NCBI GenBank assembly: GCA_020445745.1
Contig: JAGRGB010000053.1
Location: 1 to 64,000 of the forward strand
DNA length: 64,000 nucleotides
DNA from: Rhodocyclaceae bacterium
Lineage (GTDB): Bacteria; Pseudomonadota; Gammaproteobacteria; Burkholderiales; Rhodocyclaceae
Direction: 5' to 3'
Positions within the stretch are counted from its first letter, which is position 1; every line of letters begins with the position of its first letter. The notes below the pieces were generated by a model. It ran no database searches, was not told where the DNA came from, and worked only from the letters and a program-made list of their open reading frames with translations. Positions 25,065-50,344 of this stretch are shown here, piece after piece. Position numbers and translations under genes: made by a program.

Positions 25065-25114
25065 TTCCCCACTGCTTTCCCCACATTTGAGGAATACCGG
25101 GCCGGAGTGGGGAA
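25065..25114. promoter_or_regulatory. Cluster of three TTCCCCAC elements (probable activator binding sites)
   Basis: TTCCCCAC occurs at 25065-25072 and 25077-25084, twelve bases apart, and in inverse orientation as GTGGGGAA at 25107-25114. They lie about 64-113 bp ahead of the inferred start of transcription, the usual range for enhancer sites of NtrC-family activators. The same octamer recurs upstream of the multicopper oxidase gene (38478-38495). The activator encoded at 34982-36421 is the obvious candidate, by inference. Confidence 0.65.
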
Positions 25115-25151
25115 TCTTTATAAATCAGTTGTCTATTGTGATTTCTGGGCG

Positions 25152-25167
25152 TGGCATGGTTCTGGCT
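25152..25167 (+). promoter_or_regulatory. Sigma-54-type promoter of the secretion operon
   Basis: TGGCATGGTTCTGGCT fits the -24/-12 consensus TGGCACG-N4-TTGCW with two mismatches. It keeps the invariant GG (25153-25154) and GC (25165-25166) ten bases apart. Transcription would start near 25178, leaving a leader of about 76 nt before the gspE ATG. Confidence 0.7.
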
Positions 25168-25253
25168 TCGGGGGGGTGGGACATTGCTTTTCGAGGGTCA
25201 ACAGATGCCGAACCTGGATCTCAAGGGAGGCTGCGGCGGTAGCGGAGGGCGCC

Positions 25254-26931
<1,678 letters not shown>

Positions 26932-26954
<23 letters not shown>

Positions 26955-27741
26955 ATTCTGCGCCGCGCTGGCACCCGGCCGGATCGAGCTGACGCGCCTC
27001 GCCGACGGCCTGCGTCGAAGGGTCGAGGCGTGGCGTCGTGCCGACCTCAGTCCCGCCGCGGGCAAGGCCGACTGCTGGCGATTCGTGCTCGACGCGCTGG
27101 CCTCGATGCTGCAGGGCGACGTCGCGGTGCGTGGTCGCCTGAAGGTCGTGCTGTCCAGTCACTGGGTGCGATTTCAGGTGATTCCGTGGAATCCGGAGAT
27201 CGCTTCGCCCGCCGAATTCGCCGCCTACGCCAGGGCATGCTTCGAGCGGGTGTACGGTGATGCGGCCGCAGACTGGGAAATCCGCTTCGACGAGGCGCGC
27301 TCGGGGGACGGGCGGATGGCCTGCGCGATCGAGCGCGAACTGCTCGACAGCATCGGCCGCGTGACGCGCGAGGCCGGCTGCCGACTGACCGGCGTGCAGC
27401 CCTATCTGATGCATGCCTTCAACCCGCTGGCGTTGCCGCTCGGGCGGCGAAACTTCGTGTTCGTGCTGGCGGAGCCCGGACGCGTCACGCTCGCGGCCGG
27501 AGATCGTGGCGGATGGACGTCGGTTCGCAACTGCACGGCGACGGTCGACGAGGGCGGCCTCCAGGCGCTGATCGAGCGCGAGCTGGAACTGATCTGCGGT
27601 GACGGCCAGCCGGAGGTCATCGTCCATGCACCCCGCATCGTCGCGAACGATTTCGCATGTGTCGATGAGCTGGGCTGGAAGCTGGTGCCGGCGGCCGGCA
27701 CGAACGACTACGCGATGGCTTGGGGAACGGGGGCGCCATGA
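26932..27741 (+). CDS. PilM/GspL-like cytoplasmic assembly protein
   Basis: A 269-residue soluble protein in the place where GspL or PilM normally lies. The start is GTG at 26932, overlapping gspE by 23 bp. Actin-like fold remnants can be guessed (FVFVLAEPGRVTLAAGD) but the sequence is divergent. It has no transmembrane segment; that is supplied by the next gene, so the arrangement is PilM+PilN-like rather than a fused GspL. Assignment rests mainly on position and size. Confidence 0.65.
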
Positions 27742-28295
27742 AGAGTCTGGATCTGGACTTCCAGCAGACGCCGCGCAGTTCCGTCGTCGGCATGGCGCTG
27801 CTGCTGGCGGGACTGGTGGCATGCGGCCTGGTGCTGGCCGAACTGGTCGAGGTGCATCAGGCACTCGATCGCGAGGGCGGGATCCTGGCCCGCATGGATG
27901 CGGCGCGTCCGGCCGCAACGCAGGCCGGCCGGCGCGTTGCCGAAACGAACCGGAAAGCCGCGCGGATCGCGCGCGAGAGGCTGGAAGGCGCGCAGGCCGT
28001 CGTCGACCGGCTGGCCATTCCGTGGGGGGAACTGCTCGCCGAGATCGAAGCGGCCGACGGCGACGATGTCGCGGTCACCGCGCTGCTGCCGGATCCGGAC
28101 AAGAGACTGGTTCGCATCGACGGGCAGGCTCGCGACCTGCGGGCGATGTTGCGGTATCACGCACGGCTGGCGGCGTCGCCGACGCTGGCCAGCGTCGCGC
28201 TGATCAACCATGAATTGGTCCTCGAGGACCCCGAGCAGCCGGTGCGTTTCAGTCTGAGCGCCGTGTGGAGGCAGCACGATGACCGCGATCAGTAA
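27738..28295 (+). CDS. PilN-like inner-membrane assembly protein
   Basis: A 185-residue bitopic protein: short cytoplasmic N-terminus (MKSLDLDFQQTPRS, the PilN-type tail that contacts PilM), one membrane helix at about 18-40, then a periplasmic coiled coil and a ferredoxin-like region. Its ATG overlaps the preceding stop (ATGA). Position between PilM-like and PilO-like genes supports the call. Confidence 0.7.
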   Translation: MKSLDLDFQQTPRSSVVGMALLLAGLVACGLVLAELVEVHQALDREGGILARMDAARPAATQAGRRVAETNRKAARIARERLEGAQAVVDRLAIPWGELLAEIEAADGDDVAVTALLPDPDKRLVRIDGQARDLRAMLRYHARLAASPTLASVALINHELVLEDPEQPVRFSLSAVWRQHDDRDQ

Positions 28296-28825: not shown

Positions 28826-29353
28826 GTGGGCATCGACCGCAGACGTTTCTGGCAGTTGTTTCTCGGCGCTTCGGCACTGCTGACGCTGGGCTCCGAGCTT
28901 CTGCCGGCGGACGATCCGGGCGCGGAAAGCTGGATGCCGGCCCATGCCGCGGTGCACCGGATGGAGGCGCCGGAGACCGCCCTCGGCGATCCCGAGACCT
29001 CGCCGGTGATCGAGTTTCCGGCGTCGCGGCAGGTGGCCGCCGGTGGAGCGGTGTTCCGCGGCAAGAGTTTTGCCGCGCCGCCACCGCCGCCGCCGCCGCC
29101 GCCACCAGCGCCGGCACCGTCGCCGCCGCCGTCGCCAAGGGTCCCTCCGGTGCCGTTCAAGTACATCGGCAAGCTGCTCGAGGGAGGTGTGCTGACGGCT
29201 TACCTGTCCCTGGGAGATCGCCTGATCGCGGTCGAACCGGGCGTCGTCATCGACCAGCGCTACCGCATCGACAGCGTCGAACCACGGCAGATCCTGTTGA
29301 CCTACCTGCCGCTGCAGGCTCCTCAGTCGATTCCAGCCGGGGCCCCGCTATGA
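28826..29353 (+). CDS. GspC/PilP-like periplasmic connector
   Basis: A 175-residue protein with one N-terminal hydrophobic segment (FWQLFLGASALLTLGSEL), a long proline-rich linker (about residues 82-110, with an unbroken run of ten prolines), and a small C-terminal beta domain of the homology-region type (FKYIGKLLEGG, AVEPGVVIDQRYRIDSVE). Such proteins link the inner-membrane platform to the secretin. It starts at GTG and its stop overlaps the gspD ATG. Confidence 0.72.
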   Translation: MGIDRRRFWQLFLGASALLTLGSELLPADDPGAESWMPAHAAVHRMEAPETALGDPETSPVIEFPASRQVAAGGAVFRGKSFAAPPPPPPPPPPAPAPSPPPSPRVPPVPFKYIGKLLEGGVLTAYLSLGDRLIAVEPGVVIDQRYRIDSVEPRQILLTYLPLQAPQSIPAGAPL

Positions 29354-31725
29354 GCGGGGGCTGCTCGTCGGGCCGCCTATTGCCGGCGCTCTGTCTGGCG
29401 GTGGCGATCGCCGGCTGCGCCAGCCCGCGCCTGCGCGACGAGGGGATGGTGCTGGTCGACGATGGTCGCATCGAGGAAGGTCTGGCGCTGCTGCGGCAGG
29501 CCGCGGCCGAGCATCCCGGCGAACCGTCCTATCGGGTCGCCCTGATCCAGGCTCGCCAGCGGGCGATGGATCGCATCCTTGCCGATGCCCGCGAGGCCGA
29601 ACTGGCCGGTCAGGCCGATCGCGCGCGCGAGGCCTACCGGCGGGCGCAGGCGATCGACCCGGAGCATCCGCGGGTGCGCGAAAGCCTGCGCATGGCCGCC
29701 AATCGCGACGTGCTCTCGGACATCGACGCGCAGGCCCGCGAGGCCTTGGCGCGGGGCGACATCGATGTCGCCGAACGCCTCACCGCAAACGTGCTGGCGC
29801 TCGATCCCGGCGATGACGAGGCGCGGGCGCTGAAGGCCGAGATCGACCGCGTTCGCCTGCGCGAGGCGGCGCAGCTGCCGCAGATGCGCTCCAGGCTGCA
29901 CCAGCCGGTGTCGCTGGAGTTCCGCGACGCGCCGCTGAAGATGGTGCTCGACGTTCTGTCGCGGGCCAGCGGCATCAACTTCCTGCTCGACAAGGACGTG
30001 CGCGGTGCCACCGATGTCACGATCTTCGTGCGCGACGTGCCGATCGAGGACGCGATCGAACTGCTGCTGGTGCAAAGCCAGCTCGAACGCCGGCTGATCA
30101 ACGAGAACACGATCCTGATCTACCCCAACACACCGCAGAAGGTGAAGGAATTCCAGGATCTGGTGATCAAGCCCTTCTACCTCACCAACAGCGACGTCAA
30201 GCACGCCCAGCAGATGCTCAAGACGATCCTCAAGGCCGACGACGTCTTCATCGACGAGCGCCTGAACCTGCTGGTGATGCGTGACACCCCGGAAGCCATC
30301 CGGCTCGCCGAAAAGCTGATCGCCGCCCAGGATTTGGCCGAGCCGGAGGTGGTGCTCGAGGTCGAGGTGCTCGAAGTCACGCGCAGCAAGCTCACCGAGC
30401 TGGGCCTCAAGTTCCCGTCGCAACTGGTCGGTCCGGGCGGCACCATCGAAAATGCCCGGATCCTCAACGGCGGCACGATCGGTCTTAACAGCGGCCTGGT
30501 CCTCAACCTGAAGAAGGAGGACGGCGACACCAACATCCTGGCCAGCCCTCGCATCCGGGTGCGCAGCCGCGAGCAGGCCAAGGTGCATATCGGCGATCGT
30601 GTGCCGGTGGTCACGGCGATCGTGACGCCGTCCACCGGCACGCCGGTGACCACCGACCAGATCCAGTATCTGGACGTGGGCCTCAAGCTGGAAGTCGAGC
30701 CGACCGTGCACCTCGACGACGATGTCGCGATCCGCGTCGGGCTCGAGGTCAGCACCTTCAGCCGCCTGCCACCGACGCCCAACGGCACCACGCCGATCCA
30801 GGTCAGCACGCGAAACGCCCAGACGATGCTGAGGCTGCACGACGGCGAGACCCAGGTGCTGATGGGGCTGCTGCGCGACGACGACACCCGTACCGCGACC
30901 AAGGTGCCGCTGCTCGGCGATCTGCCCGGCATCGGCCGTCTGTTCTCGAGCGAACTCTCCGATGCCAAGAAGACCGAGGTGGTGTTGCTGATCACACCCC
31001 ACGTGGTGCGCAACGTGCGACGCCCCGAGCTGAGCCTGGCGGGCATCTGGTCCGGTACCGACAGCGTGCTGCGCGTCGCGCAGCCGCTTGCCCGTGGTCC
31101 CGTCGTCGGTGCCCCGCTGCTGGCCGACGCGAGCGCGTTGATGACCGCGGCCGCCTCGCTTCCGGCGTCGACCGGCGTGAGCGACTTCGCCGCGCCACCG
31201 AAGGTCGCCAGCGCCCAGGCAGCCCCGGCGGGGGCGCCCGTGGCAACGACGATCGCGTCCGAAGGTGCCGCTGGCGACAGCCGCATCCGGGGCGCTGCCG
31301 GAGGCGCGGCGGTGCGCTACACCTGGCGGGGCCCCAGCCACGTGCGGGTCGGCGAGGCGTTCGAGCTGTCGCTGGTCTCCGACAGCGAAACGCCGCTGAG
31401 TGCAACCTCGCTGCAGATGCGGCTCGATCCGGCCGAGTTCGAGGTGCTCGAGATCAGCGAAGGCGGGGCCCTGCGCGACGGTGGCGGTGGCACCGCCTTC
31501 CGCCAGCGGATCTACCCGGCCGGTGGCCGCATCGCAATGGGCGTGGTGCGCGACGACGGTCGCGCAGTCGGCGGCAGCGGCGAACTCGTGATCCTGCGCC
31601 TGCGCGCCCGCAAGCTCGTCGACGAGGCCCTGGTGCATCTGTCCAGCGTCGCACCGACCGGCGCCGATCGGCAGAGCCTGCCGGTGCGGGCAAGCGGACC
31701 GTTCAGGATCAAGGTGGTGCCATGA
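29350..31725 (+). CDS. gspD: Secretin (GspD-like) with N-terminal TPR region and C-terminal cohesin-like domain
   Basis: Outer-membrane secretin, 791 residues. It has a lipoprotein signal (AIAGC, Cys23), TPR-like helices at about 30-165, an N0/STN-like domain at 185-260, an N1-like domain at 268-330 and the secretin barrel at about 335-555 (with VPLLGDLPGIGRLFSS and KTEVVLLITPHVV). A linker of about 90 residues then leads to a cohesin-like beta domain (about 660-790: VRVGEAFELSLVSD, LSATSLQMRLDP, LVILRLRARK). Classical GspD has neither the TPR region nor the cohesin-like tail, so this is a divergent secretion branch. It lies in the middle of the operon. Confidence 0.9.
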   Translation: MSGGCSSGRLLPALCLAVAIAGCASPRLRDEGMVLVDDGRIEEGLALLRQAAAEHPGEPSYRVALIQARQRAMDRILADAREAELAGQADRAREAYRRAQAIDPEHPRVRESLRMAANRDVLSDIDAQAREALARGDIDVAERLTANVLALDPGDDEARALKAEIDRVRLREAAQLPQMRSRLHQPVSLEFRDAPLKMVLDVLSRASGINFLLDKDVRGATDVTIFVRDVPIEDAIELLLVQSQLERRLINENTILIYPNTPQKVKEFQDLVIKPFYLTNSDVKHAQQMLKTILKADDVFIDERLNLLVMRDTPEAIRLAEKLIAAQDLAEPEVVLEVEVLEVTRSKLTELGLKFPSQLVGPGGTIENARILNGGTIGLNSGLVLNLKKEDGDTNILASPRIRVRSREQAKVHIGDRVPVVTAIVTPSTGTPVTTDQIQYLDVGLKLEVEPTVHLDDDVAIRVGLEVSTFSRLPPTPNGTTPIQVSTRNAQTMLRLHDGETQVLMGLLRDDDTRTATKVPLLGDLPGIGRLFSSELSDAKKTEVVLLITPHVVRNVRRPELSLAGIWSGTDSVLRVAQPLARGPVVGAPLLADASALMTAAASLPASTGVSDFAAPPKVASAQAAPAGAPVATTIASEGAAGDSRIRGAAGGAAVRYTWRGPSHVRVGEAFELSLVSDSETPLSATSLQMRLDPAEFEVLEISEGGALRDGGGGTAFRQRIYPAGGRIAMGVVRDDGRAVGGSGELVILRLRARKLVDEALVHLSSVAPTGADRQSLPVRASGPFRIKVVP

Positions 31726-32204
31726 CCGTATTGCGGGCTTGCGGGGGTTTCACGCTGATCGAGATGGTGGTGACGCTGGCCATTGTCGGCGTGCTCGCAT
31801 CGGTCGCCCTGCCGATGGCGGAGCTGGCGGTCCAGCGCGGCGACGAGCAGGAACTGCGTCATGCGCTGCGCCAGATCCGGACAGCCCTCGATGCGTACAG
31901 GCAGGCGGTGGAACGCGGCCGCGTGGCCAGCCCGGCGGATGCCTCCGGCTATCCGCCGAGACTCGAGGCGCTGGTCGAAGGTGTCGTCGACCTGCACGGC
32001 AGCCGCGGCGAACGCATTTTCTTCCTGCGCCGCCTGCCGCGCGATCCGATGCATCCGGATCACACCCTGGCGGACGCCCTGACCTGGGGCAAGCGCAGCT
32101 ACGCCAGTTCCCACGACGATCCACGTGAAGGTGCGGACGTCTTCGATGTCTATTCGCTTTCCGATCGACGGGCGATCGACGGCAGCTGGTACCGGGAGTG
32201 GTGA
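31722..32204 (+). CDS. Pseudopilin (GspG-like) 1
   Basis: A 160-residue type IV pilin-like protein. The prepilin peptidase site is G9|F10 in GGFTLIEMVVTLA with the conserved Glu at mature position 5. A C-terminal segment (LPRDPMHPDHTLADALTWG) resembles the GspG calcium loop region. It overlaps gspD by 4 bp and the next pseudopilin by one base. Confidence 0.85.
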   Translation: MTVLRACGGFTLIEMVVTLAIVGVLASVALPMAELAVQRGDEQELRHALRQIRTALDAYRQAVERGRVASPADASGYPPRLEALVEGVVDLHGSRGERIFFLRRLPRDPMHPDHTLADALTWGKRSYASSHDDPREGADVFDVYSLSDRRAIDGSWYREW

Positions 32205-32578
32205 TGAAGATCCGTCGGGGTTTCACACTGATCGAGATGCTGGTGGTGATGGTCGTGATCGCGATGCTGCTGACGATCGCCACGCCCCGCTACCTGCATA
32301 GCGTGGATCGCGCGCGGGAGAACGTGCTGCGCGAAAACCTGCTGCTGATGCGCGATGCGCTGGACAAGCATTTCGCCGACCACGGGCGGTATCCGGACGC
32401 TCTGGTGCAGCTCGTCGAGCGCCGCTACCTGCGGGCCGTGCCGGTGGACCCGCTGACCGACAGCGCCGAGACGTGGCTGCTGGTGGCACCGCAGCGTGCG
32501 GATCTCGGGGTCGTCTACGACGTTCGCAGTGGCGCCGAGGGCACGACGCGCGGCGGCGTCGCCTACGGAGAGCTGTGA
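32204..32578 (+). CDS. Pseudopilin (GspG-like) 2
   Basis: A 124-residue pilin-like protein with cleavage site G6|F7 in RRGFTLIEMLVVMVVIAM and Glu5 conserved. The globular part has YPDALVQLVERRYLRAVPVDPLTD, the GspG pattern, given here as YPDALVQL and VPVDPLTD. Its ATG overlaps the preceding TGA, preceded by GGGAG. Confidence 0.85.
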   Translation: MKIRRGFTLIEMLVVMVVIAMLLTIATPRYLHSVDRARENVLRENLLLMRDALDKHFADHGRYPDALVQLVERRYLRAVPVDPLTDSAETWLLVAPQRADLGVVYDVRSGAEGTTRGGVAYGEL

Positions 32579-32580: not shown

Positions 32581-33198
32581 ATGGACCCGATGCCCCGATC
32601 TTGCGCGCGGATGTGGATGGCGCGACGCCGGGCGGCGGGATTCACGTACGTTGCGCTGTTGCTGGGCGTCGCTCTGCTGGGCAGTTCGCTGGCCTGGCTC
32701 GGGCAGTCGTGGCAGCTCGCCAGCCAGCGCGAAGCCGAGCGCCAACTGCTGTTCGCCGGCCGCCAGATCCGCCAGGCCCTGCTTTCCTATCAGCGCAGCG
32801 GACCTGCCTTCGGCCAGTTGCCCTACCGTCTCGACGAATTGCTGGACGACAGCCGGGGCGTGTCCGTTCGACGGCACCTGAGGCGTATCTATCCGGATCC
32901 GGTCGGCGACGGGCAGCCGTGGGCGTTGATCACCGACGAAGCCGGCCGCGTCCTCGGCGTGCACAGTCGTTCCCGGCGGCAGCCGCTGAAGCGTGCGGGA
33001 TTCGCGAGCGGCGAGGAAGAATTCGAGGCGGCCGGAAGCTACGCCGACTGGCGCTTCGCGGTGCGGCATGCTGCGATGCGGGAAGACGAGGCTGGGGCTC
33101 CACCCTCACGGGACCAACGCCACCGCTATCGCCCCGGCGCCCATCCGCCCACGGCGGCGGTCGCACCGGACGACGACAGAGACATCGGGAAGCCATGA
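32581..33198 (+). CDS. Pseudopilin 3, lacking the conserved Glu5
   Basis: A 205-residue pilin-like protein. The likely cleavage site is in RRAAGFTYVALLLGVALLG, but mature position 5 is Ala instead of Glu, as in tip-type minor pseudopilins such as GspK. The body contains LPYRLDELLDDSRG and RRIYPDPVGDGQPWALI, similar to the GspG globular domain; the tail is long, basic and probably disordered. It follows pseudopilin 2 by 2 bp and is last in the operon. Confidence 0.75.
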   Translation: MDPMPRSCARMWMARRRAAGFTYVALLLGVALLGSSLAWLGQSWQLASQREAERQLLFAGRQIRQALLSYQRSGPAFGQLPYRLDELLDDSRGVSVRRHLRRIYPDPVGDGQPWALITDEAGRVLGVHSRSRRQPLKRAGFASGEEEFEAAGSYADWRFAVRHAAMREDEAGAPPSRDQRHRYRPGAHPPTAAVAPDDDRDIGKP

Positions 33199-34989: not shown

Positions 34990-36421
<1,432 letters not shown>

Positions 36422-41600: not shown

Positions 41601-44600
41601 CCGCACCTCGAGCCGCAGCCGCACCCGTTCCTGGGCGCTGGCGTGCGCAACGAGTGGCTGGGGGCGCGGGTGACGCTGCAGCGCTGGTTCGCCGACCCGG
41701 TGGTCAACACCGACGGCGTGGACCGCGGCCTGGGCATCATCTTCACCCACGACCACTACGGTCCTTCGACCCACCAGCAGATCGGTCTGTACGCTACTGT
41801 ACTGACCGAGCCGGCCGGATCGAAGTGGGTGCATAACGAGACCGGCGACCAGATGTACACCCGTGCGGACGGCGGGCCGACCAGCTGGCAGGCCTCGATC
41901 CTCCCGGGCGAGGTGGGTGGCTACACCCAGAACGTCGGTGCCAGCGAGCTCGATGCGTTCCGCGAGTTCTACTTCGAGTACAGCGACTTCCAGAGCGCCT
42001 ACCAGAAGGGCGTGTATGTCGGCGCGGGCCCGGATGGCCGTCCGCATACCACGGTCGGTGCCGACGGCGTCGGTCACCCGGTGCACGACGCCGCTGGCAT
42101 CAACACGGCCTTCCCGGTCACTGCCGCCACCTTCCGCGACTCGATCAACCCGTCCTTCCGCCAGGAAGCCGGGCTGCCGGACATCGTCAACCACCCGGCG
42201 TTCTGCCCGGGCGGTGTGCCGCGTCCGTGCCCGGAGGCGATCACCGCCGACGACACCGGCATGCTCGTGGTGAACTACCGCAACGAGCCGGTCGGTCTGC
42301 GGGTGTTCGATCCGGATCAGGAGGGCCCGGATGGCCGGATGGGAACCCAGGCCAATGGCCGTCGTGGCGACCTGGCTTTCGCGCTGCAGTCGCGTACCGA
42401 CCGCCGTATCCCGCAGATGAACACCGTGCTGGGCGATACGCCTTATCCGGCGCTCAACCGCGACCTCGATCCGGGTGATCCCTTCACCCCGACCTTGCGG
42501 ACCTACTCGGGCGACCTGGTCAAGGTCAAGTTCCAGGCCGGTGGTCACGAGCACGAGCACAACGTCACGATCCACGGCGTCAAGTGGCTGCAGGGCGGCT
42601 CGGGACACGGCAAACAGCCGAACGCAGGCTGGAAGAACGGCCAGAGTGCGGGTATCTCGGAGCAATTCACGCTGTCCACGCCGGTCGTCGCCGACTTCCA
42701 GCAAGGCAGCGAGATGGCCGACTACCTGTGGAGCGTGGACGCGAGCCAGGACGGCTGGTGGAGCGGCATGTGGGGTCTGCTGCGCAACTACACGATGTTG
42801 CGCGACGACCTGCCGGCGCTGCCGAGCAATCCGAAGCCCGTGGTCGCTGCCAACCGCGATCAGTTCGACGGTGTCTGCCCGAAGACCGCTCCTATCCGGC
42901 GCTTCGACGTCACCGCGGTGCTGGCCAACAACGCCCTGCGCAACCGCCTCGGCGTCGCCATTCCGGAGAACAACAACCCGCTCGACAACGTCGGTGGTCG
43001 GTTGGATCCGGACGGCGGCACGCTGGTGTACAACCCGCGTCGCACCCAGATCCGCAATCTGACGGTTCAGCTGGACAACGGCGAGACCCTGCAGATCGCG
43101 GGCAACAAGGGGCCGCTGCATGACCCGACCGGGATCATGTTCGTGCGCACTGCCGACCTCAACCAGGAAGGCAAGCTCAAGAGCAGCGCTCCGGTCGAGC
43201 CCCTGGTGTTGCGAGCCAACGCCGGTGACTGCCTCTACGTCACGCTGCGCAACGAGCTGCACGACGAGATGCCCGATCTGGCAGGCTACAACACGCTGCT
43301 GCAGGTCGTGCGTCGAGATCGTGGCCGTCGCGGTGGCGCGCTGACCTGGTTCGAGAACAACCTGATCCGTCCGTCCACGGAGCTGGGCCTCCACCCGCAA
43401 CTGGTGGAGTACGACGTGACCCGTTCCGACGGCGTCAATGTCGGCCAGAACCGTGTGCAGACGGTCGGGCGTGGCGATGTGGCGACCTACCAGTGGTACG
43501 CCGGCCACCTCGAGCCGGGTGGCAACCGCCAGCCGTTGTCGGCCACGGTCGCCCAGCAGATGGAGGCGGCGGAAGCCCAGGTGCTCAACGATGGGCGGAT
43601 CGACGACGACGTCGTTGCCGAGACCGAGATCAAGAACCTGGCTTCGACCGAGTTCCTTGACGACGACTTCAGGCTCGGCGATGTCGATCAGGCGACGCGC
43701 GACGCGATGGTTGCCCAGGAGGAGCTCGAGTACGAGCTCGGAGGTCCTGACGACGGCATGACCGAGGACGCCGACCGGCTGATCGTCGCGGTGCCGACCG
43801 CCGACACCACCGACATGGTGGATCTGGTGGCGACCGCGGTCGAGTTCGGTGGCTCCAACCTGACGCCTGCCGACAAGATCAAGCAGACGCAGAAGGGCAT
43901 GGTCGGTGGTCTGGTGATCGAGCCGGAAGGTGCTACCTGGGCGGACGACCGTGTGCTGGCCAACCTCGACCGGACCATCGACCACCAGGTCGACACCACC
44001 GGTCTGGCGACGCCGGCGACCATCGGTACCCGTGCTCAGGTCACCGTCACCAACGGCGAGCGCGCGTTCCGCGACCTGGTGCCAGTGCATCAGAAGGCGC
44101 TGAACCTGCGCTTCGCCGACGGTGCCGCCGTGCCCAACCTGTCCGCCGAGGGTCAGACGATCCCCGAGGACAGTCACGACGCGGGCCAGATGGCGATCAA
44201 CTACGGCACCGAGCCGGCCTGGTTCCGCTTCGGCCTGCCCGCGCAGTCGCCGTTCGGCAAGCAGGGCTTCGGTGGCGTGGCCAACGCCCACCAGCTGTTC
44301 AGCAACCAGTGCTGCGATAACGGTGGTACCGCCACCACGGCGACCAGCGACGTCGGCGAACCGGCCACCCCGGTATTCGTCGCGAGCGCTGGCCAGGAAG
44401 TGCGCATGCGCGTGCTGGAGCCCTCGGGCGCCGGTCGCGGCACGATCTTCAGCCTGCATGGCCACCTGTGGGCGCGCGATCCGTACTTCTGCCCGGGTGA
44501 ATCCCGCAACGGCCTGCCGGGCGCTTGCGAGATGAACACCGTGGCTTCCCGTGCGATCGGCGTCAACCCGCTCTCCTTCCTGTACCTCGGGGCGCAGGAG

Positions 44601-44741
44601 AGCGTGCAGCCGATGGCGCACTTCGAGCTGTTCCTGCCCAAGGCAGGCGGCCAGGGTGCGATCGCCGGTGACTACCTGTTCGTCGATCGCGGCGCCTTTG
44701 GTCGTACCAACGGCCTGTGGGGCCTGATGCGCGTGCAGTAA
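38661..44741 (+). CDS. Giant multicopper oxidase, MofA/MnxG (manganese oxidase)-like
   Basis: A 2,026-residue secreted protein with an N-terminal export signal (hydrophobic stretch about 27-42, cleavage after AQA near residue 45). Copper-ligand motifs are spread over the whole length: H503-L-H-N-H507; HCHFYPHFAQGM at 554-565 (a T1-type His-Cys-His...Met cluster); H927-I-H; H1030-D-H-Y-G-P-S-T-H; H1296-E-H-E-H; H1933-G-H-L-W; H1987 near the end. Size and the early placement of the HCH...M cluster resemble MofA of Leptothrix and MnxG of Pseudomonas putida, both implicated in Mn(II) oxidation. Mn(II) as substrate is inference; another metal or an organic is possible. AGGAGG precedes the ATG. It has its own sigma-54-type promoter and follows a type II secretion locus that may export it. 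Confidence 0.85.
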   Translation: MSKRSDSVPRPQRRHRSRGSTRLGQMLAVSSLAGLAIWASPAQAQVACSKTFRAEVVAIDQPVMFNRLGAQNINWMMYALKEDVVDSNNVPLTMAGSNPQPGRVKLRGDKRPRPLVLRVPAGTCLQVELTNLLASAANPNNAPIPGTPPFNLQIDDQVADRHVGFHSSGLQLVGSIDDDGSMVGKNPGAVGSLVPVGSTRTYTLLAEKEGAYEVTSHGAQFGADATAGNTTNGLFGEVIVEPTGSSVYRSAVTEEEMRLVTRLDRNGNPRRTPDGQPIINYEAVYPNEQPWIAEGKAGRTILNMIQGGRIVHTEIDAVIAYGPTGKISGDGSFPASTYPLESVGKRNPTYPTRLQPFRDFASVFHDENAASQAFPEWYLDPVLGHTLHGVRDSFMINYGSGGIGTEIIANRLAVGPMHDCLGCAYEEFFLTSFTVGDPAMLVDVPANFGLEGCTPALVGCEDVGPKANEALYPADPSNVHRSYVGDAVKFRNIHVGKEQHVFHLHNHQWLFNPNDDNANYLDAQGIGPGSGYTYEIAFGGSGNRNKSAGDAIFHCHFYPHFAQGMWYMWRIHDVFEEGTRLAASGEAFHDSPFALQSGKPAAGARAYPDGEIVAGSPIPAVVPLPGKAIAPMPGEVTVVPKIADNGVTVGSNAKVIDRDVNPGYPFWVAGIEDTVGQRPPTPPLDMASKALMAQLKGSGDPLWAKVDATGTAEGFDGGLPRFATQGFADGGTAVATQSRLDLSKIVTKAKPVYFPEEGTDLEQVAMRFMAQRAHPSYKVDANGAVSTADFIVNGLPPVAGAPYADPCVDDGGQRLNAGVVGNFFGAVGLSTRGASPFNADSPRVYKAGNVQIDAVFNKVGYHYPQQRIISLWEDVNPFINKTKAPEPFVIRMNTFDCTMYAHSNFVPAEFEVDDFQVRTPTDIIGQHIHLPKWDLTTADGAANGWNYEDGTLSPGAVRERIEAINHFNEEREAAGLEPVGPHLEPQPHPFLGAGVRNEWLGARVTLQRWFADPVVNTDGVDRGLGIIFTHDHYGPSTHQQIGLYATVLTEPAGSKWVHNETGDQMYTRADGGPTSWQASILPGEVGGYTQNVGASELDAFREFYFEYSDFQSAYQKGVYVGAGPDGRPHTTVGADGVGHPVHDAAGINTAFPVTAATFRDSINPSFRQEAGLPDIVNHPAFCPGGVPRPCPEAITADDTGMLVVNYRNEPVGLRVFDPDQEGPDGRMGTQANGRRGDLAFALQSRTDRRIPQMNTVLGDTPYPALNRDLDPGDPFTPTLRTYSGDLVKVKFQAGGHEHEHNVTIHGVKWLQGGSGHGKQPNAGWKNGQSAGISEQFTLSTPVVADFQQGSEMADYLWSVDASQDGWWSGMWGLLRNYTMLRDDLPALPSNPKPVVAANRDQFDGVCPKTAPIRRFDVTAVLANNALRNRLGVAIPENNNPLDNVGGRLDPDGGTLVYNPRRTQIRNLTVQLDNGETLQIAGNKGPLHDPTGIMFVRTADLNQEGKLKSSAPVEPLVLRANAGDCLYVTLRNELHDEMPDLAGYNTLLQVVRRDRGRRGGALTWFENNLIRPSTELGLHPQLVEYDVTRSDGVNVGQNRVQTVGRGDVATYQWYAGHLEPGGNRQPLSATVAQQMEAAEAQVLNDGRIDDDVVAETEIKNLASTEFLDDDFRLGDVDQATRDAMVAQEELEYELGGPDDGMTEDADRLIVAVPTADTTDMVDLVATAVEFGGSNLTPADKIKQTQKGMVGGLVIEPEGATWADDRVLANLDRTIDHQVDTTGLATPATIGTRAQVTVTNGERAFRDLVPVHQKALNLRFADGAAVPNLSAEGQTIPEDSHDAGQMAINYGTEPAWFRFGLPAQSPFGKQGFGGVANAHQLFSNQCCDNGGTATTATSDVGEPATPVFVASAGQEVRMRVLEPSGAGRGTIFSLHGHLWARDPYFCPGESRNGLPGACEMNTVASRAIGVNPLSFLYLGAQESVQPMAHFELFLPKAGGQGAIAGDYLFVDRGAFGRTNGLWGLMRVQ

Positions 44742-44887: not shown

Positions 44888-46852
44888 GTGACAGTCAGAA
44901 CTTTCAAGGCACTGGCGATCGCGACGGCGATCTGGACCATCGGCGCGGTCGTCCCGGCGCCGGCACTGGCCGCGAACCAGGTGGTCGCGCCGCCGAGCAC
45001 GGTCGATGTGCCCGGCCGGATCAGCGACCGGCTGGTGCGCGACGGACTGGTGATCGACTTCGAGGCGACACCGGTCGAGAGCGACGCGATCACCGAGGGC
45101 CTGCTCACCGACGTGCGCTTCCGCATCACCCAGGAAGCCAGCGGCGAGCCGGTCAAGGGCGTGTACCCGGCGGCCTGGCTCGACGTCGGCGCCAACATCG
45201 GCGGCAAGGACGGCGAGATCAAGGAGTGCCGCGACAAGGTCGGTCTGTACCTGAAGGGCATCGTCGGCATCCGGCCGATGCTGGATCTCAACGGTTACTA
45301 CGTGCTGGTGCTGAACAAGGATCCGAGCATTTCGGTGGTGGACCCGATGGTCAACATGGCCGGCCGCACCAGCACCTACGCGATCATCGTGCTGAAGCGC
45401 CCGCCGATGGACTGGGCCCGCAGCAAGGACGAGAAGACCCTGTTCGTGTCGATGCCAGTGGCCGACGAGGTCGCGGTGATCGACGCCGACCATTTCAAGG
45501 TCACCCACAACGTACCGGCCGGCGACAATCCCACCCGTGTCGTCGTGCAGCCGGACGGGCGCTACGTCTGGATCGGCAACAACGGTGTCGGCGACAACAG
45601 CGGCGTGACCGTCCTCGACGCCGAAAGCTACAAGAAGGTGGCCTTCGTGCCGACCGGACCTGGCCACCACGAGATCAGCTTCTCGGACGACTCGGCCCAC
45701 GCCTTCGTCACCAACCGCGACGACGGCAAGGTCAGCGTCGTAGACGTCGCCAGGCTCGAGAAGATCAAGGATCTGGACGTCGGCAAGCAGGTGTTGTCGG
45801 TCGGTTACTCGGCGCTCGCCAAGGCCGCCTACGTGGCCGACGGCAAGACCGGCCAGATCACCGTGATCGACGGCGAGAGCCTCGACATCCGCAAGCGCAT
45901 CCAGTCCCACCGGGGCCTCGGTCCGCTGCGGGTGTCGCCGGACGGCCGCTGGGTGATGACCGCCAACACCCTGAAGGACCAGGTGCTGGTCATCGACGCC
46001 GCCAACGACCAGGTGGTGAACAGCATCGACGTCGCCGGCGAGCCGTTCCAGCTGACCTTCTCGCGCAGCTTCGCCTACGTGCGCGGCCTGTCCACGTCGA
46101 AGGTCAGCCTGATCAACCTGTCTTCGCTGGGCGAGGGCAAGAAGCCGATCATCAACAGCTTCGATGCCGGCAACAAGGCGCCGAAACTGGCCGGTGATCT
46201 GCCGCTGGCCGACACGATGACGACGGCGAGCACCGACACCTCGGCCTTCATCGTCAATCCGGCCGACAACACCACCTACTTCTACATGGAAGGCATGAAT
46301 GCGCCGATGAGCAACTACAAGAGCTTCGGCCATGTCGCGCGCGCCGCCAAGCTGGTGGACCGCAGCCTCAAGGAAGTGGAGCCCGGCGTCTATTCGACCA
46401 AGGTGCGGCTGCCGGTCGATGGGCGTTTCGATGTTGCGCTGATGCTCGACACGCCGGAACTGGTGCACTGCTTCTCGATGAGCGCCGAGCGCAACCCGAG
46501 CATGCACCAGGCAGGCAGCTGGAACGTCGAATTCGTCGGCGAGCGCCAATCGGGCATCGTCGGCGAGCACGCCCGCCTTCGCTTCCGCATCGTCGACCCG
46601 GTCAGCGAGGAGATCAAGCACGGCGTAGAGGATGCCACCGTCACCTGGTACCGGGCGCCGGCCTTCGAGCGGCGTCAGGCGCACGCGACCGAGGTCGAGC
46701 CGGGTGTCTACGAGGTCCGGCTGGAGTTCGCGAAGGCGGGTGCCCACTACGCCTTCGTCCAGGTGCCGTCCCTGAAGATCAACCAGGAGAATTCACGTTT
46801 CCGCTCGATCCGGGTCGACGCGGAGCGGGTCGCAGCCGCCAAGGCCAAATGA
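44888..46852 (+). CDS. Secreted YVTN/cytochrome-D1-like beta-propeller protein
   Basis: A 654-residue exported protein (signal peptide ending APALA, near residue 29). The middle part, about 150-420, has repeated blades (LFVSMPVADEVAVIDAD, VVVQPDGRYVWIGNN, AFVTNRDDGKVSVVDVA, VTPD-like RVSPDGRWVMTAN). It then has a C-terminal beta domain at about 500-640 (VALMLDTPELVHCF, GVYEVRLEFAKAG) like those of FixH/YtkA-type proteins. No CxxCH heme motif is present. The start is GTG 44888 with AGGAG upstream. Its role is unknown; position between the oxidase and copper chaperones suggests a periplasmic redox or copper-related partner. Confidence 0.8.
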   Translation: MTVRTFKALAIATAIWTIGAVVPAPALAANQVVAPPSTVDVPGRISDRLVRDGLVIDFEATPVESDAITEGLLTDVRFRITQEASGEPVKGVYPAAWLDVGANIGGKDGEIKECRDKVGLYLKGIVGIRPMLDLNGYYVLVLNKDPSISVVDPMVNMAGRTSTYAIIVLKRPPMDWARSKDEKTLFVSMPVADEVAVIDADHFKVTHNVPAGDNPTRVVVQPDGRYVWIGNNGVGDNSGVTVLDAESYKKVAFVPTGPGHHEISFSDDSAHAFVTNRDDGKVSVVDVARLEKIKDLDVGKQVLSVGYSALAKAAYVADGKTGQITVIDGESLDIRKRIQSHRGLGPLRVSPDGRWVMTANTLKDQVLVIDAANDQVVNSIDVAGEPFQLTFSRSFAYVRGLSTSKVSLINLSSLGEGKKPIINSFDAGNKAPKLAGDLPLADTMTTASTDTSAFIVNPADNTTYFYMEGMNAPMSNYKSFGHVARAAKLVDRSLKEVEPGVYSTKVRLPVDGRFDVALMLDTPELVHCFSMSAERNPSMHQAGSWNVEFVGERQSGIVGEHARLRFRIVDPVSEEIKHGVEDATVTWYRAPAFERRQAHATEVEPGVYEVRLEFAKAGAHYAFVQVPSLKINQENSRFRSIRVDAERVAAAKAK

Positions 46853-46866
46853 AGGAGTTCATTCCG

Positions 46867-47589
46867 ATGCACATGCCAATTCGTACCCGTACCCGGTTCC
46901 CCGCCATCGCGGCGACCCTGCTGATGCTGTCGTCTGTGGCGTCGGCAGGCGACATGGCGCATGCCCAGCACCCGCCCATGGACCACTCCCGGCACCAGGC
47001 GATGGATCATTCCGCCCATGGCGGCGCGGATCCCCATGCGGCCCATCGGGCAGCGACGGCCAAGGCGACCGCGCCGACCACCCTCGATGTCGTGGTGCCG
47101 AATGCCCGACTGCTCGACCAGGACGGCCGGCAGGTCGCTTTCGTCGATGACGTGCTGGGCGACAAGGTGGTGGTCATCGACTTCGTCTACACCACCTGCA
47201 CGACGATCTGTCCGGTGCAGTCGGCGGTGTTCAACGCGCTGCAGGGCAGGCTGGCCGACAAGCTGGGTGACAGCGTCAGGCTGGTCTCGCTGTCGGTCGA
47301 CCCGCGCCGCGATTCGCCGGCACGCCTCAAGCAGGCCGCCGACAAGTACGGCTCCGGTCCCGACTGGACCTGGCTCACCGGCGAGCACGCCGAGGTCGAG
47401 GACGTGCTCAGGGCCTATGGCGCCTATACACCGAACTTCACCGACCATCCGCCGCTGGTGCTGGTCGGCGATGCGGTGAGCGGCAAATGGACGCGGTTCT
47501 TCGGCTTCCCGGACATCAGCAGGATCCTCGATGTCGTCGACGCGTCCATGGCCGCGCGCGAGCCCGCGAGCTATGCCCGCGCCCACTGA
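46867..47589 (+). CDS. SCO1/SenC-family copper chaperone A, with His/Met-rich N-terminus
   Basis: A 240-residue periplasmic thioredoxin-fold protein. The SCO copper site is present: C111-x3-C115 in TTCTTICPV and His194 in FTDHPP. The segment after the signal peptide is rich in His and Met (HPPMDHSRHQAMDHSAHGG) and probably binds copper too. I chose ATG 46867 with AAGGAG at 46852-46857; an ATG at 46849 overlapping the previous stop lacks such a site. SCO proteins load copper into cytochrome oxidases; here delivery to the multicopper oxidase is a contextual inference. Confidence 0.88.
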   Translation: MHMPIRTRTRFPAIAATLLMLSSVASAGDMAHAQHPPMDHSRHQAMDHSAHGGADPHAAHRAATAKATAPTTLDVVVPNARLLDQDGRQVAFVDDVLGDKVVVIDFVYTTCTTICPVQSAVFNALQGRLADKLGDSVRLVSLSVDPRRDSPARLKQAADKYGSGPDWTWLTGEHAEVEDVLRAYGAYTPNFTDHPPLVLVGDAVSGKWTRFFGFPDISRILDVVDASMAAREPASYARAH

Positions 47590-47625
47590 AGCCGACACCG
47601 AACCACGGGTTCAAAGGAGAAAACC

Positions 47626-48297
47626 ATGAAACGTACAGTCGCCCCCTTCGTGGCTGCCCTCGGACTCGCACTTGCAGCGCTGGCGAATGCGCACGAATCG
47701 GCCGGCGACGGTCCGGGCGCGCCGGTGGCACGAGCTGGTTCGAACAAGCCGGTGGCCACCGATATCGCGGCGGTCCGCCGCAAGGCGCCGGATGCGCGGG
47801 CCTACTTCACCGACCTCGAACTCCAGGACCAGCATGGACGGACAGTGAAGTTCTACTCCGACGTGCTGGCCGGCAAGGTGGTGATGCTGAACTTCATCTA
47901 CACCAGTTGCGAAGACGCCTGTCCGCTGATCACCCAGGCGATCGTCGCGGTCAAGGACCAGATCCCAGAGATCTTCGGTTCGCCGGTGCATTTCGTCTCG
48001 ATCAGCGTCGATCCGGTCACCGACACGCCAGCGCGTCTGCGCCAGTTCGCGGCCAGCAACCGGGCCGATGTCGAGGGCTGGACCTTCCTCACCGGCGATC
48101 CCGCCAATGTCGCGCACATCCTCAAGAAGCTGGGCCAGTTTTCCGAGGAGCGCGAGGCCCATTCGACGCTGCTGATCGCCGGCAACGTGCCGGCCAAGCG
48201 GTGGAGCAAGATCCGGCCGGAAGCGCCCGCGGCCGCGATCGCCGAGCGCCTGCGGGCGCTGGCCGCGGCCGGGGTCCAGGCCCGTGTCCACGAGTAG
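47626..48297 (+). CDS. SCO1/SenC-family copper chaperone B
   Basis: A 223-residue exported protein with SCO fold and residues C95-x3-C99 (YTSCEDACPL) and His179 (EAHSTLL). It lacks the His/Met-rich extension of the neighbouring SCO protein, suggesting different tasks, for example thiol reduction versus copper transfer. It follows 36 bp after SCO A and overlaps the next gene by 14 bp. Confidence 0.88.
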   Translation: MKRTVAPFVAALGLALAALANAHESAGDGPGAPVARAGSNKPVATDIAAVRRKAPDARAYFTDLELQDQHGRTVKFYSDVLAGKVVMLNFIYTSCEDACPLITQAIVAVKDQIPEIFGSPVHFVSISVDPVTDTPARLRQFAASNRADVEGWTFLTGDPANVAHILKKLGQFSEEREAHSTLLIAGNVPAKRWSKIRPEAPAAAIAERLRALAAAGVQARVHE

Positions 48298-49870
48298 GCT
48301 TGCGCGACTGCGCGGCATCGCGGTGCTCCTGGGCGTGCTCGCCGCCGGCCCGTCGGCTGCCGCCCTGAGCGCCGAAGAGGCGGCCGGCCGGCGCTTGTAC
48401 GAAACCGGCATCGGCGTTTCCGGCGAAGCGCCCCAGGCCCGGGTCGGCAGTGGCGGCCTGGCCTTGCCGGCATCGGCGCTGCCGTGTGCGAACTGCCACG
48501 GCCGGGATGGACGCGGACGCCCGGAAGGCGGCGTGACGCCGCCCGACATCCGCTGGTCGGAACTGATCAAGCCCTACGGCCACGTGCACGAGAATCGGCG
48601 TCGGCATGGTCCCTTCGATGCCGATGGCTTCCGGATCGCGGTCGGCGATGGGCTCGACCCGGCCGGCAACCGGCTCGACCAGGCAATGCCGCGTTACCTG
48701 TTCGGCGCGAGGGATCTCGACAACCTGAGGGCCTACCTGCGGCATCTGGAGAAGCGGGCGGCACGCGGCGTTGGCGACATGCATGTTCAGATCGGCACGC
48801 TGCTGCCGCTGCGCGGCCCGCTGGCCGACGCCGGCAAGGCGGTGCGCGGCATGCTGGAGGCCTACTTCGCCCGAGTCAATGCCGCCGGCGGAATCTATGG
48901 TCGCCGCCTCGAACTGGTAGTGGCCGAGTATGCCAACGATGCCGAGCGCAGCGTAGACAATCTGGGTCACGCCCTCGACGATGGCGACGGCGTGTTTGCA
49001 CTGCTGTCGCCGTTCGCCGCCGGCTTCGAGCGCCGCCTGACCGATCTCGCCAAGGCGCGGGATCTGCCGGTCGTGGCGCCGGTGGTGCTGGTGCCGGACA
49101 ATCGCCCGGCCGCCAACAGCCACGTCTTCCATCTGCTGTCCGGTGGTACCGAGCTGGCGCGGGTGCTGGCCGACTATGCGCGCGCGACGCTCGAGCTGGA
49201 CAACCGGGACATCGTGCTGGTGCAGTCGGCCGGGAGCGCCTGGGACGGCGCGGCGCAGGATGTCAGCGCCCATCTCGAGCGCGGTGGCGACGGCAGTCCG
49301 GGTCGGACGCTGTTTCGTCGCGGCCTGACAGATCTCGATGGCATGGCGGCGAAGCTCGAGGCCGACGGCGCCAAGGCGGTGATCCTGCTCGGCGGCGATC
49401 TCGATCCCGCGGTTTTCGCTGCCGCCGCTGCCCGCAACGACTGGTATCCGGAATTGCTGGTGCCGGGCCCGTTCGCTTCGCAGGATGTGATGGCATTGCC
49501 GCCAGGCTTCGACGGCAAGGTCTTCGTCGCCTATCCGAGCTTGCCCACCGACCGCGACAAGGCCACCTGGCAAGACTACCTCGCGCTGCTCGCCGAGGCC
49601 GGCATCGACCGCGCCCCCCATGCCACGCTGGTGGCGAGCTATGCGGGCGCCGAACTGCTGGTCGAGGCGCTGAAGCGGGCCGGGCGCGAACTCAGCCGCG
49701 AGGCGATGGTGCTCGGCCTCGAGAAGATCCAGGGCTTCGAGTCGGGGCTGCTGCCACCGCTCACCTACAACACGACCCGCCGCGTCGGGGCCCTCGGCGG
49801 CTACGTCGTTGCCGTCGATCTCGCGAAGCGGGTGTATCGGCCGATCGGGCCGTGGCGCAGCCTCGACTGA
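48284..49870 (+). CDS. Fusion of cytochrome c and type 1 periplasmic binding protein
   Basis: A 528-residue exported protein. After the signal peptide comes a class I cytochrome c domain (C68-A-N-C71-H72; possible axial M135 in LDQAMPRY). It is followed from about residue 155 by a complete LivK-like periplasmic binding domain (VQIGTLLPLRGPLADAGKAV, GGIYGRRLELVVAEYANDAE, and on to the C-terminus). No permease or ATPase genes lie near. The start GTG 48284 overlaps the SCO B gene. I infer a periplasmic electron carrier whose binding domain senses or docks a ligand; substrate unknown. Confidence 0.85.
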   Translation: MSTSRLARLRGIAVLLGVLAAGPSAAALSAEEAAGRRLYETGIGVSGEAPQARVGSGGLALPASALPCANCHGRDGRGRPEGGVTPPDIRWSELIKPYGHVHENRRRHGPFDADGFRIAVGDGLDPAGNRLDQAMPRYLFGARDLDNLRAYLRHLEKRAARGVGDMHVQIGTLLPLRGPLADAGKAVRGMLEAYFARVNAAGGIYGRRLELVVAEYANDAERSVDNLGHALDDGDGVFALLSPFAAGFERRLTDLAKARDLPVVAPVVLVPDNRPAANSHVFHLLSGGTELARVLADYARATLELDNRDIVLVQSAGSAWDGAAQDVSAHLERGGDGSPGRTLFRRGLTDLDGMAAKLEADGAKAVILLGGDLDPAVFAAAAARNDWYPELLVPGPFASQDVMALPPGFDGKVFVAYPSLPTDRDKATWQDYLALLAEAGIDRAPHATLVASYAGAELLVEALKRAGRELSREAMVLGLEKIQGFESGLLPPLTYNTTRRVGALGGYVVAVDLAKRVYRPIGPWRSLD

Positions 49871-49926
49871 CACGCGGGCGTTCGAGTCGATCCGGCATCT
49901 GATCTCGTAGAGACAAGGACTTGCAC

Positions 49927-50344
49927 ATGGAACGCAGAGAACTCCTGATCGGAATTGCCGGAGCCGCACTGGCCAGCCTCGCGCGCGTTCGCGCAGCACG
50001 AGCACCATCACCCGGCCGGCAGCCTTGCGCGAGACAGTTTGGTGGATGCCGCTGGCGCCTGCGTGGCACGCGCCGAGGCGTGCCTGGCCCACTGCCTGGT
50101 GCTGATGGGCGACGGAGACACGGCGATCGCCGCGTGCGCCCGCTCGGTCAATGAGACCATCACCGCCTGCACGGCACTGCAGAAGCTGGCCGCACAGAAC
50201 TCGAGCCATGCGCCGAAGATGGCCGTGCTGACCGAGGAGATTTGTCGCGCCTGCGAGGACGAGTGCCGCAAGTAAGAGGACGAGCACGCCGAATGCAGGG
50301 CCAGCGCCGATTGCGCCAAGGCGTGCAAGGGTCTTTCCGCCTGA
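49927..50344 (+). pseudogene. Csp1/DUF326-type copper-storage protein, disrupted
   Basis: The gene starts as MERRELLIGIAGAALASLA, an export signal. It then needs a frame change within the GCGCGCG run at 49981-49987: restoring two bases gives ...ARAFAQHEHHHPAG. It then continues as a Cys-rich four-helix protein (ACVARAEACLAHC, SSHAPKMAVLTEEICRACEDECRK). An in-frame TAA at 50273-50275 interrupts it. Beyond this, the same frame still reads EDEHAECRASADCAKACKGLSA up to TGA at 50342, the normal Csp ending (22 codons, described here in two parts: EDEHAECRAS and DCAKACKG). Two lesions mean a decayed gene unless these are assembly errors. Intact Csp proteins store Cu(I). Confidence 0.75.

What the first reader, a model, noticed from the sequence alone, without database searches (positions are those of the whole stretch)
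25065..50344. Putative regulon: sigma-54-controlled giant metal oxidase with its own secretion machine and copper-supply genes
A type II-like secretion operon, an NtrC-type two-component system, gspFG and a 2,026-residue multicopper oxidase lie together. They share sigma-54-type promoters and an octamer motif and are followed by two SCO chaperones, a cytochrome-c/binding-protein fusion and Csp copper-storage remnants. Known parallels are partial. In Geobacter a pseudopilin gene (oxpG) is needed to export the multicopper oxidase OmpB. In Pseudomonas putida GB-1, Mn oxidation needs an NtrC-type regulator MnxR, and type II secretion is involved in export of the Mn oxidase. Here sensor, regulator, exporter, oxidase and copper supply form one block. 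That reading of the block is my inference.
Basis: partly seen in the sequence, partly recalled or inferred. Interest (0 to 1): 0.9.

Follow-up and report, generated by a model that had tools for sequence, protein, structure and literature searches.

The report
Manganese-oxidase regulon with its own exporter
A bacterium close to the Rhodocyclaceae carries, side by side, a giant enzyme of the kind that turns dissolved manganese into mineral, a machine that probably exports it and a sensor-regulator pair that probably switches both on, with a shared DNA switch that recurs in front of the same genes in distantly related bacteria.

Summary
The block is a Rhodocyclaceae version of a known system: MnxG-type manganese oxidase operon, MnxS/MnxR-type two-component system, and a PilMNO-type type II secretion cluster like the one beside mnxG in Pseudomonas. 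The new part is regulatory. The octamer is half of an inverted repeat, core TGGGGA-N3-TCCCCA, near sigma-54 promoters. A matrix trained on Pseudomonas mnxG promoters ranks the window's oxidase and gspE promoters first and second in 64 kb, though the third site scores almost as high as the second. The core occurs at two places in this genome: before the giant oxidase, and before a second oxidase 66% identical to the McoA-position gene of P. putida ASAD. Regulator orthologue and sigma-54 promoter co-occur: 21 of 22 genomes against 0 of 4. I read the repeat as the MnxR binding site, placing exporter, oxidases and copper supply in one predicted regulon. Against: no UAS before the sensor operon, a weaker gspFG promoter, mixed gspE evidence, a broken Csp gene. 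Expression, secretion and Mn oxidation are untested.

The parts
25055..25114 (.). UAS cluster (two TTCCCCAC, one GTGGGGAA) upstream of the secretion operon
   Evidence: half-sites aligned in sister loci L149 and L151
25152..25167 (+). sigma-54-type promoter TGGCATGGTTCTGGCT of the secretion operon
25254..26954 (+). GspE-type ATPase (566 aa)
   Evidence: Pfam T2SSE; 60% identical to P. putida ASAD gspE beside mnxG
26932..27741 (+). PilM/GspL-like protein, named by position
   Evidence: no Pfam hit; 37% to the P. putida ASAD gene in the same place
27720..28295 (+). PilN-like protein
   Evidence: Pfam PilN, below gathering score
28279..28824 (+). PilO/GspM-like protein
   Evidence: Pfam PilO
28826..29353 (+). 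PilP/GspC-like proline-rich protein, named by position
   Evidence: no Pfam hit; 30% to the P. putida ASAD gene in the same place
29350..31725 (+). secretin with N-terminal TPR-like region
   Evidence: Pfam Secretin, STN, TPR
31722..32204 (+). pseudopilin 1
   Evidence: N_methyl
32198..32578 (+). pseudopilin 2
   Evidence: N_methyl
32581..33198 (+). third pseudopilin-like protein
   Evidence: my reading of the sequence; the longer open frame gave no Pfam hit
33427..34989 (+). histidine kinase, MnxS-like
   Evidence: HisKA, HATPase_c; 41% and 38% to the two kinases beside the P. putida ASAD regulator
34961..36421 (+). NtrC-type response regulator, MnxR orthologue
36462..37646 (-). GspF
   Evidence: T2SSF
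37650..38084 (-). GspG major pseudopilin
   Evidence: T2SSG, N_methyl
38121..38136 (-). sigma-54-like promoter GGGCACCGACCTTGCT of gspG
   Evidence: identical in L017
38468..38495 (.). UAS: GTGGGGAGATTCCCCAC palindrome plus TTCCCCAC
38550..38565 (+). sigma-54 promoter TGGCATGGATGCTGCA of the oxidase operon
38661..44741 (+). MnxG-like giant multicopper oxidase, 2,026 aa
   Evidence: NF041487 2461 bits; alignment A1
44888..46852 (+). YVTN-type beta-propeller with YtkA-like domain
46849..47589 (+). SCO1/SenC copper chaperone 1
47626..48297 (+). SCO1/SenC copper chaperone 2
48284..49870 (+). CxxCH cytochrome c-like region fused to Peripla_BP_6
   Evidence: CANCH
49929..50344 (+). Csp1-family copper-storage gene, broken (frameshift and early stop)
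   Evidence: intact in L017

Best explanation
The block is an MnxG-type manganese-oxidation locus together with its exporter. The MnxS-like kinase senses a signal (Mn in P. putida, by literature; unknown here) and phosphorylates the MnxR orthologue. MnxR binds inverted repeats with core TGGGGA-N3-TCCCCA, in the window about 60-100 bp upstream of sigma-54 promoters, and activates three transcription units of this genome: gspE to secretin to pseudopilins; the oxidase operon (oxidase, propeller, two SCO proteins, cytochrome c/binding protein); and an mcoA-like second oxidase on another contig, where the sites lie about 180-260 bp upstream of the sigma-54 site. gspGF may be switched from the same sites. 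SCO proteins supply copper, and the PilMNO-type secretion system moves the folded oxidase across the outer membrane. Shown: genes, order, motif, sigma-54 sites and their conservation. Inferred: binding of MnxR to the repeat, transcription units, co-expression, cargo identity, Mn(II) as substrate.
For: Gene order: of the 69 of 80 loci with at least 9 kb downstream of the oxidase, propeller in 67, both SCO genes and cytochrome/binding protein in 66, gspE in 63. P. putida ASAD: gspG(divergent)-mnxG-propeller-SCO-SCO-cyt/PBP-SurA-receiver-gspE-pilMNOP-secretin ... kinase-oxidase-SCO-kinase-regulator within about 40 kb, the layout reported for DSV-1 and MS-1, where mcoA-SCO lies between mnxS1 and mnxS2 (PMC11409713, section 8 read). 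Regulator orthologue of at least 56% identity in 23 of 27 oxidase genomes that I picked, with a nearly identical C-terminal helix in 13 of the 14 fetched. sigma-54 score of 26 or more before the oxidase in 71 of 77 evaluable loci; base shuffles mean 0.39, maximum 2. Heptamer TTCCCCA/TGGGGAA: 125 copies in 80 upstreams; dinucleotide shuffles mean 10.2, maximum 21. Matrix trained on Pseudomonas found, p 0.010 or less, in 7 of 7 non-Pseudomonas oxidase promoters that have both regulator orthologue and sigma-54 site (all 7 lie in one family). Core palindrome at 2 places in the genome: giant oxidase and mcoA-like gene. Footprints in sister species. rpoN present.
Against: No expression or binding data. 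The oxidase misses the MnxG curated cut-off and in a midpoint-rooted tree groups with L018, L030 and L095, apart from the Pseudomonas, Aromatoleum and Burkholderiales rows; the genomes of L018 and L095 lack a regulator orthologue, that of L030 has one. The loci are not independent: 66 of 80 are titled Pseudomonas, and the 7 out-of-sample promoters are the window, L017, four Aromatoleum and L023, one family. Best sites lie 68 bp from the -24 element in only 3 of these 7; the others at 82, 92, 105 and 298 bp. In the window the top matrix score (18.6) is reached by 1 of 20 shuffled windows, the third site (10.3, inside the propeller gene) nearly equals the gspE site (10.7), and shuffled windows hold more sites of 5 bits or more than the real one (mean 26 against 11). 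gspE: p 0.045 or less in 4 of 8 upstreams, and G140 (L150) has a different upstream. The sites before the mcoA-like gene score weakly in the matrix (6.7 and below). In one pattern search this genome gave 1 hit, not at these genes, against 2 in the control. gspE relatives are common without MnxG: 81 of 199. Ramlibacter L029 has the regulator but no such promoter before its mnxG.
Confidence: 0.78

Rival explanations
1. The secretion cluster is a general type II exporter that merely lies next to the oxidase; the oxidase uses another route.
For: gspE relatives at E 1e-150 or better occur in 81 of 199 family genomes, while MnxG was found in 8 of 199. Genome G003 has a gspE 66% identical and no MnxG hit; G194 has MnxG pieces but only a cut gspE fragment.
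Against: The 9 gspE genes over 720 bits lie in 7 genomes with a MnxG hit, in G104, whose contig stops just before the oxidase, and in G003. Shared UAS and sigma-54 promoter here; gspE near the oxidase in 63 of 69 loci.
Confidence: 0.12
2. The repeat is bound by some other regulator and not by the MnxR orthologue.
For: No binding data; each genome holds many related regulators; the L029 exception.
Against: sigma-54 promoter and regulator orthologue co-occur (21 of 22 against 0 of 4); the C-terminal helix is conserved while the whole protein is 56-60% identical outside the sister species; the repeat marks genes of both oxidase types linked to MnxR in P. putida.
Confidence: 0.12
3. The oxidase acts on another substrate (iron, copper or an organic compound) and the system is a metal-resistance regulon.
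For: Score below the MnxG cut-off, separate branch, an acidic insertion of about 85 residues net that is absent from the four relatives in A1.
Against: Same operon order, regulator type and exporter as in Pseudomonas loci whose GB-1 counterparts are Mn oxidases (literature); an McoA-like partner behind the same repeat.
Confidence: 0.15

Closest known systems
mnxG operon of Pseudomonas putida GB-1 (PMC11409713 Table 4; PMC8218464 Fig. 2 legend)
   Same: oxidase, YVTN propeller, SCO, SCO, binding protein with cytochrome c domain, in that order
   Different: GB-1 has a SurA-domain gene next; no such hit among the window ORFs scanned, where a Csp gene follows; the oxidase is below the MnxG curated cut-off
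MnxS1/MnxS2/MnxR two-component system
   Same: sigma-54 response regulator 56% identical to that of P. putida ASAD with a nearly identical C-terminal helix; kinase homologous to both neighbouring kinases (41%, 38%)
   Different: one kinase beside the regulator (a second elsewhere was not searched for); adjacent to gspFG and the oxidase
Gsp-related (Xcm) pathway for the Mn-oxidizing factor of P. putida GB-1 (de Vrind 2003, title seen; Xcm cluster of GB-1 and KT2440 named in PMC4509608, passage read; PMC3521999, passage read)
   Same: PilMNO-type secretion cluster with gspE near mnxG and divergent gspFG
   Different: here upstream of the oxidase with its own UAS and sigma-54 promoter, not downstream of the mnx operon; no sequence named xcm was compared
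Geobacter OmpB/OxpG
   Different: not compared by sequence

Membership tests
MnxG (NF041487 equivalog) | score at or above the curated cut-off of 3100 bits | tested here: not met
   2461 bits, two stretches; L002, L003, L004, L005 and L010 exceed it
mnxG operon | order oxidase, propeller, SCO, SCO, binding protein/cytochrome c | tested here: met
MnxR | NtrC-type regulator orthologous to the one beside the mnxS kinases | tested here: met
   P. putida ASAD regulator 56% identical; next-best regulators mostly near 42%, though some genomes hold a second group at 47-58%
MnxR | required for oxidase expression | not testable with these tools
   needs mutants
sigma-54-controlled promoter | -24/-12 elements with the right spacing, conserved, and rpoN in the genome | tested here: met
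   oxidase and gspE promoters; consensus and weights recalled
Xcm-type type II secretion system | sequence match to the named xcm cluster | tested here: inconclusive
   matched to the cluster beside mnxG in P. putida ASAD, not to a record named xcm
Type II secretion system | ATPase, secretin, GspF, major pseudopilin, inner-membrane platform | tested here: met
   a prepilin peptidase was not searched for outside the block
McoA | orthologue of the oxidase lying between mnxS1 and mnxS2 in Pseudomonas | tested here: met
   second oxidase 66% identical over 919 residues to the P. putida ASAD gene at that position; no sequence named McoA was compared

The most novel reading that the evidence does not exclude
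The inverted repeat TGGGGA-N3-TCCCC(A) is the MnxR box: one conserved switch that, in Rhodocyclaceae and Pseudomonas, ties the manganese oxidases MnxG and McoA, their copper chaperones and a dedicated type II exporter into a single regulon, either by separate boxed promoters (here and in P. resinovorans) or by placing the exporter downstream of the mnx operon (P. putida).
Probability: 0.66. Interest if true: 0.68.

Novelty: new variant of a known kind. Interest (0 to 1): 0.58.

Why it matters
Why bacteria oxidize manganese and how they control it is open; a 2013 paper states that the regulon of the GB-1 two-component system is unknown (PMC3798386, passage read). A candidate MnxR box turns that into a short test list: mnxG, mcoA, the exporter and their copper supply. 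It predicts that oxidase and exporter are made together, and offers a sequence marker for likely Mn oxidizers. On print: four papers in the searched library hold both names mnxG and mnxR. Passages in three (PMC11409713, PMC11930936, PMC8218464) show no MnxR binding site; the fourth (PMC10978986) was not opened. PMC11930936 reports predicted IHF and sigma-54 sites in both oxidase promoters in a supplementary figure that I could not see. Papers outside that library were not searched.

Tried and rejected
Rejected: the octamer by itself as a signal (53 in the genome, reversed control 70). The C147 pair of octamers, 61 bp apart, was fetched (L097); its open frames were not searched against families and showed nothing I recognise. 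Two further TTCCCCA plus sigma-54 matches (C100, C169) were not examined; L098 was fetched but not analysed. Two pattern hits in Aromatoleum precede a frame that reads to me like an aromatic ring-cleavage dioxygenase (L145, L146; no family search), probably another sigma-54 regulator. The pattern gave 33 hits in 15 genomes against 8 in the reversed control, but 1 against 2 in this genome. gspE as a marker of MnxG failed: 81 of 199 genomes carry a relative. No Rfam match in the gspG-oxidase intergenic region.

Faults of my own: locus L030 was given a wrapped upstream (its oxidase starts at the contig end) and is left out of the sigma-54 counts, with L019; both were still in the 80 upstreams. 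L021 was too short. One row of the first tree was on the wrong strand; rebuilt. The regulator alignment ignored strand and the script crashed; redone. The window row of the kinase alignment was out of frame and is not used. The training set of 65 includes L052, titled Pantoea. sigma-54 weights are mine on a recalled consensus. Shuffles keep base content only. The Fisher test (21 of 22 against 0 of 4, p 3e-4) ignores relatedness, and its genomes were picked by me: 28 of 80 loci, 27 genomes, L030's left out.
Full report
What is there. The window is 1-64000 of a 112,685-base contig of a 4.88-Mb genome. Its nearest named relative is a Rhodocyclaceae MAG, L017 (94% oxidase identity in the best segment).

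What it is. The oxidase matches the NCBI family for MnxG at 2461 bits, under its cut-off of 3100, so I call it MnxG-like. Motifs that I recall as multicopper-oxidase copper ligands (HLHNHQW, HCHFYPHFAQGM, LHGHxW) are invariant with four relatives that are 57-61% identical. In a midpoint-rooted tree of 22 rows it falls with L017, L018, L030 and L095, apart from the Pseudomonas, Aromatoleum and Burkholderiales rows.

Conservation of the block. A genome scan found 430 relatives and returned the best 80 loci; 66 of the 80 are titled Pseudomonas. Of the 69 with at least 9 kb downstream, 67 have the propeller, 66 both SCO genes and the cytochrome/binding protein, 63 gspE. Of 58 with at least 4.5 kb upstream, 38 have gspG and 37 gspF. 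Kinase and regulator lie within the fetched flanks in 5 of 80 (L017, L023, L054, L059, L072). In P. putida ASAD the regulator lies about 30 kb beyond the end of the oxidase gene in a kinase-oxidase-SCO-kinase-regulator cluster, the mnxS1-mcoA-SCO-mnxS2-mnxR layout reported for strains DSV-1 and MS-1 (PMC11409713, section 8 read). This identifies the window regulator as an MnxR orthologue (56% to ASAD) and the kinase as MnxS-like (41% and 38%).

Regulator distribution. I searched the regulator in 27 genomes that carry the oxidase, reached through 28 of the 80 loci. An orthologue of at least 56% identity is present in 23. The best match is 37-42% in the genomes of L088, L018 and L095, and 51% in that of L039. 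All four lack a sigma-54 site of 26 or more before the oxidase; 21 of the 22 evaluable others have one. The exception is Ramlibacter L029. That genome has a half-site cluster and a 27-point sigma-54 site before an McoA-like gene instead (L126).

The motif. Across 80 oxidase upstreams (79 loci and the window) the heptamer TTCCCCA/TGGGGAA occurs 125 times against a mean of 10.2 and a maximum of 21 in 200 dinucleotide shuffles, in 57 of 80 upstreams. Of 124 copies placed against a sigma-54 site, 71 lie 65-69 or 75-79 bp upstream of the -24 element. A matrix trained on 65 upstreams, all titled Pseudomonas but for L052, gives GTGGGGAATnTCCCCCGA at 66-70 bp. On other loci it is found (p 0.010 or less, 200 shuffles) in the oxidase promoters of the window, L017, L022, L023, L043, L045 and L072, at 82, 92, 105, 298, 68, 68 and 68 bp from the -24 element, and in the gspG promoters of L023 and L072. 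It is not found for L018, L029, L039 and L088; L095 gives p 0.025 but has no sigma-54 site. These seven positive loci belong to one family as grouped, so the comparison is between two families, Rhodocyclaceae and Pseudomonadaceae, not many. For gspE: window 0.030, L149 0.005, L151 0.284, L054 0.045, L059 0.005, L072 0.731, L023 0.935, L022 0.269; in the last three gspE lies downstream of the mnx operon. In the 64-kb window the two best sites are 38468 (18.6 bits) and 25055 (10.7), the oxidase and gspE promoters; the third is 45949 (10.3), inside the propeller gene; 1 of 20 shuffled windows reaches the top score.

Footprints. Between window and L017 the UAS block and both sigma-54 sites of the gspG-oxidase intergenic region are conserved while the stretch between UAS and promoter has diverged; a hairpin and the leader before the oxidase are conserved too. 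The gspE upstream with half-sites and sigma-54 site aligns in L149 and L151 but not in L150. G104 carries the same block (genes 54-92% identical) up to the end of its contig, 0.1 kb after the UAS.

The regulon outside the window. The core TGGGGA-N(2-4)-TCCCCA occurs at two places in this genome, control none; in six genomes of the genus at four places, three of them in the gspG-oxidase intergenic region and one elsewhere, with one control match in G194. The other place (C109, L159) holds a cluster of half-sites about 440 bp before, and a 26-point sigma-54 site 205 bp before, the start of a second multicopper oxidase of 931 residues, 66% identical over 919 residues to the P. putida ASAD gene between the two kinases, which by position is mcoA. 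mnxG and mcoA are both Mn oxidase genes in GB-1 (PMC5906577, PMC11409713, passages read), activated only with Mn present, and MnxS/MnxR are proposed to be needed (PMC11930936, passages read). The pattern search thus led to the partner oxidase without being aimed at it.

Mechanism. Kinase to regulator to UAS to sigma-54 polymerase is standard for NtrC-type systems (general knowledge). In Pseudomonas sp. MS-1 an rpoN insertion abolishes Mn oxidation and is complemented (PMC11409713, passage read). In P. putida ASAD the genes before gspE run in the same direction with gaps of about 14, 142 and 84 bp by my gene starts, so one transcript may cover the mnx operon and the exporter. Here and in P. resinovorans-like genomes (L054, L059: repeat and sigma-54 site before gspE) the exporter has a promoter of its own. 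The common outcome would be co-production of exporter and cargo. This is inference.

Limits. No expression, binding, secretion or enzyme data. The loci are not independent. De Vrind 2003 was seen as a title and through passages in PMC4509608 and PMC3521999; Geszvain and Tebo 2010 only through other papers.

Noticed in passing
window 38189-38254: Near-perfect hairpin (14-nt arms, MFE -40.6 kcal/mol, z -2.3) in the gspG-oxidase intergenic region, with 45 nt identical in L017 and a copy in G104, no Rfam match.
   Followed up: partly
window 49929-50344: Csp1-type copper-storage gene reads as frameshifted with an early stop here, while sister locus L017 has an intact gene with a signal peptide at the same place; a second fragment seems to lie near 50650-50820, by eye.
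   Followed up: partly
window about 43512-43829 (oxidase residues about 1618-1723): Acidic insertion of about 85 residues net in the oxidase, absent from the four relatives in alignment A1.
   Followed up: no
L159:3355-6614: McoA-like oxidase on contig C109 of the same genome behind a cluster of the same repeats.
   Followed up: yes
L002 and L010 (G009:C106), same contig as L019: Two MnxG-type genes in tandem on one contig of a MAG; the accessory genes did not match in L019. The same MAG has a further copy with the full block, L023.
   Followed up: no
G003:C19:28248-29885: A genome of the same family with a gspE 66% identical to the window's but no MnxG hit: possible orphan exporter.
   Followed up: no
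G202:C3:336565 and G209:C2:24845 (genomes of L054 and L059): A further repeat plus sigma-54 site between mnxG and the propeller gene in P. resinovorans-like genomes, suggesting a second promoter inside the operon.
   Followed up: no
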